Below are positions 316 through 11,682 of a DNA stretch of 64,000 bases, piece after piece (the first letter of the stretch is position 1; every line of letters begins with the position of its first letter). The translations under genes were made by a program, and so were the position numbers. The notes under the pieces are model-generated. The model made no database searches. It saw only the letters and a program-made list of their open reading frames with translations, and was not told the DNA's origin. Source of the stretch: Solirubrobacterales bacterium 67-14 (GTDB taxonomy: Bacteria > Actinomycetota > Thermoleophilia > Solirubrobacterales > 70-9); assembly GCA_001897355.1 (NCBI GenBank), contig MKST01000007.1:310228-374227 (forward strand), read 5' to 3'.

Positions 316-341
316 AAAAAACGCCCCCCGCAAAGGTGGCG
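316..341 (-). terminator. Intrinsic terminator of tRNA-fMet
   Basis: Read on the minus strand, CGCCACC pairs with GGGGGCG around a TTTGC loop with one A-G mismatch and is followed by six T. It lies just past the 3' end of tRNA-fMet in the right orientation to end its transcript. Confidence 0.75.
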
Positions 342-7970: not shown

Positions 7971-8136
7971 GATCCTCAGGCCGGAAGCGGGGAAAGAGGC
8001 GTACCATGGAAGAAGCGTTCCGATCTTTAGAAACTGGAAGATTCGCGTTTAGAGACCGCTACATTTGCCTGGGTACCGTGTTTTCGTAAGCACAGGAGGA
8101 AACCCGGGCCGCGAGGTCCCCAGTCAAAGGAGTCCC

Positions 8137-9711
8137 TTGGAAGCATCAGCACTAAATCACGCGGCACGACGAGGCCTTCTCGCCAGGAAGTCGCCCCTGC
8201 TGAAGCTTCAAGGCGACGAAAAGCTGGTCGCCATGGTGCGGGCCGGCAACTCGGGAGCCTTCGACACGATCGTCGACCGGTACCAGGCCCGCCTGCTCGG
8301 CTTCTGCCGGCAGATGATCGGCTCGACCGAGGACGCCGAGGATGTCCTCCAGGAAGTCTTCGTCAACGCCTACAAGGCGATGATGGCCGACAACCGGGAG
8401 ATCAACCTCCGCCCTTGGCTCTACCGGATCGCCCGCAACCGCTCTTTGAACCATCTGCGCAAGCCCCGGGCCGTCGCCCAGGAGTCGATGGACATGGTCC
8501 CGATGGTGGACGCCGCCTCGACCGCGGAGAAGGTCCACAACCGGGAAGAGTTCCGTCAACTGCTGCAGGACGTGACCAAGCTCCCCGAGACCCAGCGCGC
8601 TGCCCTGCTGCTGCGGGAGATCGACGCGCTCTCCTACGAGGAGATCGCCGAGGCGATGGACACGACCGTGCCCTCGGTCAAGTCGCTGCTGGTCCGGGCG
8701 CGGATCTCGCTGGCCGAGGCCAGCCAGGCCCGCATGCTCACCTGCGGCGAAGTCCGGGTCGAGCTGGCCGAGGCCGCCGAAGGCCTGGCCAAGGCTTCCG
8801 GCCCGGTCCGCCGTCACGTCCGTGACTGTGAGGAATGCCAGGCCTTCCGCAAACAGCTTCGAAGCGACAACAAGGCGCTCGCCGCACTGATGCCGGTCGG
8901 TCCGCTGGTCGCCCTCAAGGGTGCGATCGCGGCCAAGCTCGGGCTCGGTGGCGGCGCGGCCGGCACGAGTGCCGCCGGAACTGGTGCCGCCGGCGCCGGC
9001 GCCGGTGCGGGTGCGGCCGGAGCAGGAGCTGCCGGTGCCGCCGGCGGTGCGGCAATCAGCGCCGGTACTGCTGCCTCGGGCATCGGGGCCGTGACCAGTG
9101 CGGTCGGCGCCAAGGCCCTGGCCGGTGTCGTCACCGCCGCGGTGATCACCGCCGGTGCGGTCAAGGTCAAGGACAAGGTTTCGACCGAGCGGGTCACCGA
9201 TGGCAACGCCGCCACCACCAAGGCGCTCGCCTCGACCGACCCGGTCAACCCGGCCCACGCCGTGGCCCCCGCCGACCGGACTGCGGTGATCGCCGATCCG
9301 GAACTCGAGAAGGCAGATGCCGAAACCCCGACGACGCCCCCCGCCGAGCCGACCACGCCGGACGAGAGCACCGACACCACGGCTCCCCCGGTGACCGATG
9401 AACATCCGGATGACACGGCGACGATGCCGAGTGAGCCGGTGACCCCGGCCGAGCCGGCCTCCTCGGATGATGGCGACGGCCTCGAAGGCCGGCCCACCTA
9501 CCCGCCGGACGAGATCGTGAACGAGAGCCCGGCCACGGTGCCGAGCGAGGGTACGACCGATCCGGTGACCTCGCCGCAGACCCCGGGCTCGACCCCGTCC
9601 ACCCCGGTGGTCACCGACCCGTCCACCCCGGTGGTGCCGGTGACCCCGACCCCGGCTCCCGCGCCGAGCTCGCCGTCCACACCCCAGAACAGCACGGTCG
9701 TCGGGAAATAA
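8137..9711 (+). CDS. ECF-type sigma factor fused to an anti-sigma-like zinc motif and a long extracytoplasmic tail
   Basis: About 524 residues. Region sigma-2 (roughly 27-100, with the DAEDVLQEVFVNAYK segment) and region sigma-4 (roughly 140-195, with LLREIDALSYEEIAEAMD) form a complete ECF sigma factor. Beyond the usual end come C203, then H227-x3-C231-x2-C234, a spacing like zinc-binding anti-sigma domains. A Gly/Ala-rich hydrophobic stretch (about 270-350) follows that could cross the membrane, then a Pro/Thr/Ser-rich tail. I infer a sigma factor tethered to its own regulatory domain. The TTG at 8137 is chosen for its AAAGGAG site; an upstream TTG at 8065 lacks one. Repeat copy A begins at the stop codon. 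Confidence 0.82.
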   Translation: MEASALNHAARRGLLARKSPLLKLQGDEKLVAMVRAGNSGAFDTIVDRYQARLLGFCRQMIGSTEDAEDVLQEVFVNAYKAMMADNREINLRPWLYRIARNRSLNHLRKPRAVAQESMDMVPMVDAASTAEKVHNREEFRQLLQDVTKLPETQRAALLLREIDALSYEEIAEAMDTTVPSVKSLLVRARISLAEASQARMLTCGEVRVELAEAAEGLAKASGPVRRHVRDCEECQAFRKQLRSDNKALAALMPVGPLVALKGAIAAKLGLGGGAAGTSAAGTGAAGAGAGAGAAGAGAAGAAGGAAISAGTAASGIGAVTSAVGAKALAGVVTAAVITAGAVKVKDKVSTERVTDGNAATTKALASTDPVNPAHAVAPADRTAVIADPELEKADAETPTTPPAEPTTPDESTDTTAPPVTDEHPDDTATMPSEPVTPAEPASSDDGDGLEGRPTYPPDEIVNESPATVPSEGTTDPVTSPQTPGSTPSTPVVTDPSTPVVPVTPTPAPAPSSPSTPQNSTVVGK

Positions 9712-9792
9712 GCAGTCGGCCCGGTCTGCGCCGGGCCTCCAGGTTCAACCCGCCCCTCCCAATCTCATTAACTGATGGTTGGGAGGGGCTCT
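9709..9792 (+). repeat. Two-hairpin dispersed element, copy A
   Basis: It starts at the TAA of the sigma gene. Hairpin 1 is GGCCCGG (9718-9724) with CCGGGCC (9731-9737). The linker resembles CCTCCAGGTTCAACCCG. Hairpin 2 is GCCCCTCCCAA (9752-9762) with TTGGGAGGGGC (9779-9789), an 11-bp stem around a 16-nt loop containing CTGATGG. It lies between convergent genes and may act as a bidirectional terminator. Confidence 0.85.
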
Positions 9793-10524: not shown

Positions 10525-10881
10525 TCAGCTCTCCTCGTTTTCGTTTTCCGAGGCGCCGGGTGCGCCCCTGTTTTCAAGTTCCTGGCGAAGCGCCCAGCCG
10601 ACCGCGACGCCGACCATCATCCCCATCTGGGTTTCCTCGGTGAGCAGCGCGCGGATCGCGGTGAGCCGCTGGTCCTCGTCCGGAATCGTGGCCGCCTTCA
10701 GCGTTTCCGACTGGTGCGACTCGCCGAACCAGCCGCCGCTGCCGAGCGCCGTGACCAGCACCGACGGCAGACCTGGGGCCACACGGGAAACGAGCTGCTC
10801 GGCCTCGCGGAAACGCCCGGGGTCGCTCAACCGCTCGACCGCGGCGGCCAGTTCCTCGTCGGAGATGATCTCGTCAGCCAC
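10525..10881 (-). CDS. Conserved-looking hypothetical protein, 118 aa
   Basis: A small protein without recognised family. An acidic alpha-helical N-terminal half (DEELAAAVERLSDPGRF) is followed by a Gly/Ser-rich patch, a short hydrophobic MGMMVGVAVGWALRQEL segment and a Glu/Asn-rich tail. It starts with GTG. A TAGTCT -10 lies exactly 6 nt upstream and overlaps the TAG stop of the rhomboid-like gene, so it probably has its own leaderless promoter and leads into the metallo-hydrolase gene 1 nt downstream. Confidence 0.65.
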   Translation of the reverse strand: MADEIISDEELAAAVERLSDPGRFREAEQLVSRVAPGLPSVLVTALGSGGWFGESHQSETLKAATIPDEDQRLTAIRALLTEETQMGMMVGVAVGWALRQELENRGAPGASENENEES

Positions 10882-10887
10882 CGGGCC

Positions 10888-10893
10888 AGACTA
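10888..10893 (-). promoter_or_regulatory. -10 box overlapping an upstream stop codon
   Basis: TAGTCT on the minus strand. Its TAG is the stop codon of the rhomboid-like gene, and the box ends 6 nt before the GTG of the next gene. Confidence 0.45.
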
Positions 10894-11682
10894 ACGCGGT
10901 GAGTGGAACCGGGTCGCGGTGAAACCGGCCAGCAATCCGACCAGTCCGCCGGCCAGGCCGCCCCAGAAGTCGGCGGTCGGGACGAGCACCGGCAGCAGCA
11001 GGATCACCGCCGCAGCGACCAAGGCACCGGCGGCTTCGAAGCCCTCCCCGTTCACCCGTGATTCGAAGCGGGCGAGCATGAACCAGGCGGCGATCGCGCC
11101 GAGGGCGATGCCGTTGCCGCCGGCGATCACGGTCACGACATCTCGCTGGTCGGCTACCGCCGAGGCCGCGAGGGTGCCGAGGACGCCGCAGGCAAGCAGC
11201 AGCAGGAAGGCCGGAAGGGTGCCGAAGCGGCGTTCGAGGCCCGGGCCGAAGAGGGCGATGGCGAGGTCGACCGCGAACAGGTAACCGACGCTGAGGTAAG
11301 CGAAGGGAGCCGTGACCAGCCGCCACCACTCGCTGTCGAAGGGCACGATCACCCCGCCGAAGTCCTCGAGCGCGTTGCCGATAGCGATCCGCACGACCAG
11401 CGCGACTGCGGGAATCAGGATCAATGCGATCGAAGCCCAGGGCCGGGCGGCGAGCGAGGCGCTGACCGTGAAACGGGGTTCCCTGGCGGCCTTCTGCCGG
11501 GCCTTCTCCTCGCGCCGGCGCTCCCGGCGCGACTGCTTCGGCTCGAGCGCCCCGTCACCGCCCCGTTCGAGGTCGGGTGCCCGCTTGCGGACTCGGGCCC
11601 CGCAGTACGGGCACTCGGTCACGTAGGGGCTGACTTCGGCCCCGCAAGACTTGCAGACGACGCTGAGTTCCGTTTCGCTCAT
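10891..11682 (-). CDS. Zinc-ribbon, rhomboid-like membrane protein (probably catalytically dead)
   Basis: A 263-residue protein. The N-terminal zinc ribbon has C10-x2-C13 and C24-x2-C27, then a basic linker, then about six membrane helices of rhomboid type. Helix landmarks are visible: WWRLVTAPFAYLSVGYL, and FGPGLERRFG after helix 2. In active rhomboids the serine lies in GxSG; here the equivalent reads GGNGIALG, with Asn for Ser. The last-helix His is also missing (DFWGGLAGGLVG). It is therefore a pseudo-rhomboid by sequence. The ATG at 11682 follows a GGAGGGAAGG ribosome site. A role in binding or chaperoning membrane proteins is conjecture. Confidence 0.78.
   Translation of the reverse strand: MSETELSVVCKSCGAEVSPYVTECPYCGARVRKRAPDLERGGDGALEPKQSRRERRREEKARQKAAREPRFTVSASLAARPWASIALILIPAVALVVRIAIGNALEDFGGVIVPFDSEWWRLVTAPFAYLSVGYLFAVDLAIALFGPGLERRFGTLPAFLLLLACGVLGTLAASAVADQRDVVTVIAGGNGIALGAIAAWFMLARFESRVNGEGFEAAGALVAAAVILLLPVLVPTADFWGGLAGGLVGLLAGFTATRFHSPR

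What the first reader, a model, noticed from the sequence alone, without database searches (positions are those of the whole stretch)
8137..9711. ECF sigma factor carrying its own anti-sigma-like domain and a surface tail
After sigma-2 and sigma-4 the protein has a Cys/His set (C203, H227-x3-C231-x2-C234) like zinc anti-sigma domains, a Gly/Ala-rich hydrophobic stretch and about 150 Pro/Thr/Ser-rich residues. If it crosses the membrane, sigma, regulator and sensor are on one chain, and release would require proteolysis or a conformational switch.
Basis: partly seen in the sequence, partly recalled or inferred. Interest (0 to 1): 0.57.

Follow-up and report, generated by a model that had tools for sequence, protein, structure and literature searches.

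The report
Sigma factor with built-in membrane-linked inhibitor
A bacterial gene-switch protein carries its own zinc-binding inhibitor, a probable membrane anchor and a probably exposed tail on one chain, a known design seen here in a poorly studied bacterial order, where it usually sits next to a gene for a probably inactive rhomboid membrane protein.

Summary
The gene at 8137-9711 is real. It has a TTG start behind a ribosome-binding site, and both are kept in close relatives. It encodes sigma-2 and sigma-4, then a zinc anti-sigma domain (C203, H227, C231, C234), then a Gly/Ala linker, a conserved hydrophobic helix and a Pro/Thr/Ser-rich acidic tail. The four metal ligands are invariant in 30 of 30 orthologues, and 104 of 108 sampled family proteins carry them. 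Profile comparison aligns the domain with zf-HC2 anti-sigma domains. AlphaFold2 gives the four-helix class I anti-sigma topology and places sigma-2 and sigma-4 as in SigW-RsiW and CnrH-CnrY, not as in RNA polymerase-bound sigma. Membrane crossing is likely but marginal by hydrophobicity alone; support comes from relatives with stronger helices or exported Ig domains after the helix. The first hydrophobic piece (254-267) is most likely anti-sigma helix 4, not a membrane span. The architecture is known (ECF48/ECF52/ECF53); this is a separate, paralogue-rich clade without a recognisable sensor domain. Unexpected: across the order the gene is convergent with a zinc-ribbon rhomboid lacking its catalytic residues (same contig in 21 of 33 genomes compared), a candidate partner.

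The parts
8057..8082 (+). upstream block CGCTACA-N10-TACSGTGTT, largely conserved in front of the gene in close relatives; probably the promoter
   Evidence: alignment of 17 upstream regions; the only zero-mismatch copy in the genome
8126..8132 (+). ribosome-binding site AAAGGAG
   Evidence: sequence; similar site kept in close relatives
8137..9711 (+). coding sequence of the ECF sigma factor with fused class I anti-sigma domain, TTG start, 524 aa
8272..8463 (+). sigma region 2, residues 46-109
   Evidence: PF04542 E 8.6e-17
8572..8706 (+). sigma region 4, residues 146-190
   Evidence: PF08281 E 1.5e-14
8737..8889 (+). zinc-type class I anti-sigma domain, residues 201-251; ligands C203, H227, C231, C234
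8896..8937 (+). hydrophobic helix 254-267, read as anti-sigma helix 4 and not as a membrane span
   Evidence: model helix 254-267; helix 4 contacts sigma-2 in class I anti-sigma domains (PMC7406223)
8938..9102 (+). Gly/Ala-rich linker of variable length, residues 268-322
9112..9165 (+). conserved hydrophobic helix, residues 326-343, probable transmembrane span
   Evidence: more conserved than its flanks; marginal hydrophobicity; charge pattern
9166..9708 (+). Pro/Thr/Ser-rich acidic tail, residues 344-524, probably outside
10891..11679 (-). convergent zinc-ribbon rhomboid-family gene lacking the catalytic Ser and His; linked to the sigma gene across the order; candidate partner

Best explanation
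It is an ECF sigma factor that carries its own class I zinc anti-sigma domain, followed by a probable single membrane helix and an exported Pro/Thr/Ser-rich tail (sigma, zinc domain and helix 4 inside; tail outside). At rest the fused domain clamps sigma-2 and sigma-4 in a closed, RNA polymerase-incompetent arrangement at the membrane. A signal felt at or outside the membrane leads to cleavage in the helix or nearby, or loosens the zinc domain. The sigma part, freed or opened, then starts transcription. Shown here by sequence or model: domain order, ligand conservation, homology of the zinc domain, closed arrangement in the model, conservation of the helix. Inferred: membrane insertion, tail outside, zinc binding, inhibition, release by regulated proteolysis, and the nature of the signal.
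For: Sigma regions 2 and 4 intact. Ligands invariant in 30 of 30 orthologues and invariant columns in the family alignment. hhalign to 20 zf-HC2 domains of proteins that are not sigma fusions: probability 97.3, E 1.8e-11, with the HxxxCxxC ligands in register. Other actinobacterial sigma fusions of the same layout score above the Pfam zf-HC2 cut-off. AF2 model from 104 sequences: residues 21-250 mostly pLDDT above 90; helices 203-214, 222-230, 232-251, 254-267, matching the published class I topology in which Hx3Cx2C spans helices 2 and 3. The sigma arrangement fits SigW-RsiW (5wuq_A TMt 0.82, Z 18.6, rmsd 3.9 over 157) and CnrH-CnrY (4cxf_A TMt 0.86, Z 18.2, rmsd 2.4 over 153) far better than RNAP-bound sigma (6jbq_F 0.43, 5zx2_F 0.38, 6dv9_F 0.39). 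Helix window 321-340 is more conserved (0.72) than the linker (0.47-0.53) or tail (about 0.3). Tail net negative in 27 of 29 closed orthologues. Exported Big_7 and Big_6 Ig domains follow the helix in two relatives. Two M50 site-2-protease-family genes and an intact-motif rhomboid exist in the genome. Truncating the extension activates IutY, a fused sigma/anti-sigma (PMC8999054 section).
Against: The window protein itself has no zf-HC2 hit at E up to 1; only 2 of 24 orthologues do at E up to 1 and 11 of 104 family members at E up to 0.05. Helix hydrophobicity is within the soluble-control range, AF2 gives that region low confidence (pLDDT about 40), and the window protein has +2 net charge just after the helix, against the positive-inside rule. 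Many paralogue tails are net positive (36 of 56). The sigma arrangement does not match the RseA, MucA or ChrR complexes well (TMt 0.43-0.46). AF2 may favour a compact ECF sigma even without the anti-sigma domain; no such control was run and no inter-domain error matrix was available. Four of 108 family proteins keep sigma and a hydrophobic C-terminal part but lack the ligand motif.
Confidence: 0.68

Rival explanations
1. Soluble fused redox or zinc switch: the zinc domain inhibits sigma and opens on oxidation or zinc loss, and the Ala/Gly-rich helix and tail stay in the cytoplasm as linker or binding region.
For: Helix hydrophobicity is marginal; low AF2 confidence there; soluble class I domains are enriched in zinc motifs, about 72% (PMC7406223 passages); net-positive tails in 36 of 56 paralogues.
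Against: The helix is kept while linker and tail drift; homologues have clear membrane helices or exported Ig domains after them; tail is Pro/Thr/Ser-rich, acidic and almost Cys-free in orthologues.
Confidence: 0.2
2. Anti-sigma domain as a structural relic or specificity module: the protein is active without release and is controlled mainly by its synthesis; the membrane helix only places it.
For: Four of 108 family proteins dispense with the ligand motif but keep sigma and a hydrophobic segment; zinc sites can be structural, as in RsiW.
Against: Metal ligands are invariant in 30 of 30 orthologues; the model has sigma closed.
Confidence: 0.08
3. Two-span hairpin: 247-268 and 326-343 both cross, so the tail ends up inside.
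For: The first piece scores like the second by Kyte-Doolittle (1.73 against 1.75).
Against: The first piece carries an invariant Pro253 and Lys261, is modelled as a helix directly after the zinc domain and fits anti-sigma helix 4.
Confidence: 0.04

Closest known systems
ECF52 sigma factors (SCO4117 of Streptomyces coelicolor)
   Same: Sigma regions, zinc finger, transmembrane region and Pro-rich extension on one chain, in Actinobacteria (PMC5826349, passages).
   Different: ECF52 ends in a carbohydrate-binding domain; no Pfam domain is found in this tail. Group membership by the ECF HMMs was not testable here.
ECF48 and ECF53 sigma factors
   Same: Described as sigma fused to a zinc anti-sigma domain and one to two membrane helices, expected to be released by proteolysis (PMC8999054 section 3.5.3).
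   Different: No reference sequences could be compared. The Thermoleophilia clade holding this protein is cut off from sampled fused sigmas of other groups by a long, well supported branch.
IutY of Pseudomonas putida (ECF243)
   Same: Sigma fused to a membrane anti-sigma factor, released by proteolysis.
   Different: IutY is an iron-starvation cell-surface signalling protein of a Gram-negative; different sensor part and organism.
SigW-RsiW of Bacillus subtilis
   Same: Closed sigma arrangement and zinc-type class I anti-sigma domain.
   Different: Two separate proteins in Bacillus, one chain here.

Membership tests
ECF sigma factors | sigma-2 and sigma-4 present, no sigma-3 domain detected | tested here: met
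Class I anti-sigma domain (zinc type) | Hx3Cx2C plus an upstream fourth ligand, conserved | tested here: met
   30 of 30 orthologues; upstream Cys in 104 of 104 motif-bearing family proteins
Class I anti-sigma domain (zinc type) | four helices with the motif spanning helices 2 and 3 | tested here: met
   predicted helices 203-214, 222-230, 232-251, 254-267, model only
Class I anti-sigma domain (zinc type) | profile relatedness to known zf-HC2 anti-sigma domains | tested here: met
   hhalign probability 97.3; note that single-sequence Pfam search misses the window protein
Class I anti-sigma domain (zinc type) | binds and inhibits sigma | not testable with these tools
   closed model is suggestive only
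ECF52 | C-terminal carbohydrate-binding domain | tested here: not met
   no such Pfam match at E up to 1; not among the 16 families matched by 24 orthologues
ECF48 / ECF53 | membership by the published ECF group HMMs | not testable with these tools
   HMMs and reference sequences not held
ECF48 / ECF53 | one to two transmembrane helices after the zinc domain | tested here: inconclusive
   marginal hydrophobicity in this protein, support from homologues
Active rhomboid protease (neighbour at 10891-11679) | catalytic Ser in GxSG and His in the sixth helix | tested here: not met
   no Ser at that position in 21 of 21 aligned sequences and no His at the expected place; another rhomboid of the genome has GASG; the catalytic motif itself is recalled

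The most novel reading that the evidence does not exclude
The sigma factor and the convergent zinc-ribbon rhomboid pseudoprotease form one order-wide system: the inactive rhomboid holds the marginal membrane helix of the sigma factor, protecting it or presenting it to a protease, so that a membrane event gates sigma release.
Probability: 0.12. Interest if true: 0.72.

Novelty: new variant of a known kind. Interest (0 to 1): 0.42.

Why it matters
Most ECF sigma factors are held by a separate anti-sigma protein. One-chain versions are described in Actinobacteria but hardly tested. This one is kept in most genomes of its order searched, has many paralogues and no recognisable sensor domain, and has a candidate partner gene. 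It would be a compact case for asking how a fused anti-sigma domain lets go of its sigma and whether catalytically dead rhomboids regulate membrane-tethered transcription factors in bacteria.

Tried and rejected
Starting at 8065: rejected because the TTG at 8137 with its ribosome-binding site is the conserved one. First AF2 run on the full chain with 24 orthologues: mean pLDDT 53, not used. PDB sequence search with the zinc-domain alignment gave only weak hits; RsiW (5wuq_C) appears at E 0.4 and the top hit (collagen fusion, E 0.0013) has no stretch passing on its own, so I used profile-profile comparison instead. Autoregulated regulon: the upstream block has a single exact copy in the genome and near-matches are only slightly above the reversed control (19 against 13), so no regulon is claimed. 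Plasmid collection: the best matches listed cover only the sigma core, and no place covered 80% of the query. Literature: searches of the open PMC library showed no paper on this Solirubrobacterales group or on a rhomboid partner among the listed results; subscription papers are mostly not held, so this is not proof of absence. ECF52-type reference sequences were not recalled or typed, so no group number is assigned.

The family sample is biased: paralogues were picked by hand from hits to queries that included the zinc domain, so 104 of 108 overstates how common the domain is. Some rows were dropped: copies identical over the core, proteins under 230 residues, and hits starting after residue 80 of the query. 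Orthologue rows L024 and L034 end before the helix and L037 does not carry it in frame; the helix is seen in the other 27 of 30.

Full report
What is there. The window lies in a 3.23 Mb genome assembly whose close named relatives are mostly Solirubrobacterales MAGs. The finding's ORF is real: TTG at 8137 with AAAGGAG just upstream, 524 codons, stop at 9709-9711. The start context is kept in close relatives, and most relatives also use TTG or GTG. Pfam places sigma region 2 at 46-109 and sigma region 4 at 146-190.

The zinc domain. No zf-HC2 match is reported for the protein on its own. Four lines nevertheless say it is a class I anti-sigma domain. First, C203, H227, C231 and C234 are present in 30 of 30 orthologue rows. 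Second, in a wider set of 108 non-redundant family proteins, 104 carry HxxxCxxC after sigma-4, and all 104 also have a Cys 21 to 26 residues upstream, which was not selected for; in the 104-row alignment these four positions are among only seven invariant columns. Third, hhalign aligns the 82-sequence profile of this region with 20 zf-HC2 domains of other proteins at probability 97.3 and pairwise E 1.8e-11, with HxxxCxxC in register. Fourth, AlphaFold2 with 104 sequences gives blocks of mean pLDDT 92-98 for most of residues 21-250 (lower, 63 and 78, in the linker between sigma-2 and sigma-4) and helices 203-214, 222-230, 232-251 and 254-267. The published class I description has Hx3Cx2C over helices 2 and 3, helix 1 on sigma-4 and helix 4 on sigma-2 (PMC7406223, passages). 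By that reading the first of the two hydrophobic pieces is helix 4.

Sigma looks closed. The two sigma domains of the model fit anti-sigma-bound SigW (5wuq_A, TMt 0.82), CnrH (4cxf_A, 0.86) and RpoE-NepR (5uxx, 0.74-0.75), against 0.38-0.43 for sigma in RNA polymerase complexes 5zx2, 6dv9 and 6jbq; VIA-align gives Z 18.6 and 18.2 for the first two and rmsd near 27 for 6jbq, 6dv9 and 5zx2. Complexes with RseA, MucA and ChrR fit poorly (0.43-0.46). Limits: no inter-domain error, and no control without the anti-sigma domain.

Membrane helix. Residues 326-343 form the most conserved stretch after the zinc domain and helix 4 (mean 0.72 for 321-340, against 0.47-0.53 in the linker and about 0.3 in the tail), and K326, A327, A329, G330, T338, G340 and A341 are invariant in 24 sequences. 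But it is short and rich in Ala, Gly and Thr: best 19-mer 1.75, soluble controls 0.86-1.82, membrane controls 2.44-2.97. What tips the balance is relatives. Fused sigmas elsewhere in the class and phylum have plain membrane helices at the same place (for example L144, L183, L223, L228), and two have bacterial Ig domains after the helix: L184 (Big_7, E 1.1e-8), whose helix is about as weak as this one (best 19-mer 1.91), and L214 (Big_6, E 4e-8). In closed orthologues the tail is net negative in 27 of 29 and the segment before the helix is net positive in all 29; among the other family members 36 of 56 tails are net positive. I put membrane crossing at about three in four.

Family. 55 of 61 genomes (own and relatives) hold a match at E 1e-100 or better to the sigma plus zinc-domain query; one more has a 98% partial match (G001); five (G004, G017, G021, G022, G030) have only weaker matches. 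In a draw of 296 genomes of the phylum, strong matches (E up to 1e-30) came from 10 genomes, all of the same class and nine of the same order. A tree of 123 rows puts the orthologues in one clade (100/99) and 102 Thermoleophilia fused sigmas in one clade (100/99) on a branch of 0.84, apart from the sampled fused sigmas of other groups. The same genome also has other fused sigmas (L003, L044), one without the zinc motif (L002), and a conventional sigma followed by a separate zf-HC2 gene (L005/L043).

Neighbours. Downstream, convergent, are a metallo-beta-lactamase-fold gene, a 118-residue ORF without Pfam match, and a rhomboid-domain protein with an N-terminal zinc ribbon. In 18 loci from across the order the rhomboid and the 118-residue ORF are next to the sigma gene in 15 each, against 4 for PPX and 1 for the upstream membrane protein (L244 is cut by its contig end). 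Combining, 33 genomes had both genes listed: 21 on one contig, 2.4-6.3 kb apart between the compared match ends, convergent in 21 of 21. In 12 they are on different contigs. In nine of those the sigma match lies at or very near a contig end on its downstream side, or its frame runs off the contig. The other three (G039, G042, G045) are all of one genus, where G042 has several kilobases downstream without the rhomboid. G055, not in that comparison, also lacks it within the stretch taken. The rhomboid has Asn or another residue, never Ser, at the catalytic position in 21 of 21 aligned sequences, unlike another rhomboid of the same genome (GASG). Linkage does not prove interaction, and convergent genes are not an operon.

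Mechanism and known systems. The most likely working is an autoinhibited, membrane-held sigma released by regulated proteolysis or by loosening of the zinc domain. The same layout and the same proposal are in print for ECF48, ECF52 and ECF53 (PMC8999054, section 3.5.3 read) and for SCO4117 (PMC5826349, passages). It is not ECF52 by the domain test, as no carbohydrate-binding domain is found. Whether it belongs to ECF48, ECF53 or a group of its own could not be tested.

Verdict. The less expected parts are the order-wide conservation without a sensor domain, the paralogue expansion and the linked pseudo-rhomboid.

Noticed in passing
10891-11679: Rhomboid-domain protein with N-terminal zinc ribbon, lacking the catalytic Ser and His, convergent with the sigma gene in 21 of 21 genomes where both lie on one contig.
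   Followed up: partly
10525-10881: 118-residue ORF without Pfam match, linked to the sigma gene in 15 of 18 loci across the order.
   Followed up: no
L078, L002, L065, L070: Family members that keep sigma and a hydrophobic segment with tail but lack the zinc-ligand motif; L078 still has a hydrophobic piece like anti-sigma helix 4.
   Followed up: partly
L062, L066: Arg-rich, net-positive tails after the hydrophobic helix in some paralogues, odd for an exported tail.
   Followed up: no
9475-9525 (residues 447-463): Short motif DGLEG with PPDEIVNE downstream, kept inside the otherwise drifting tail among the closest relatives.
   Followed up: no
9752-9789: Inverted repeat GCCCCTCCCAA / TTGGGAGGGGC between the convergent genes, likely a shared terminator.
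   Followed up: no
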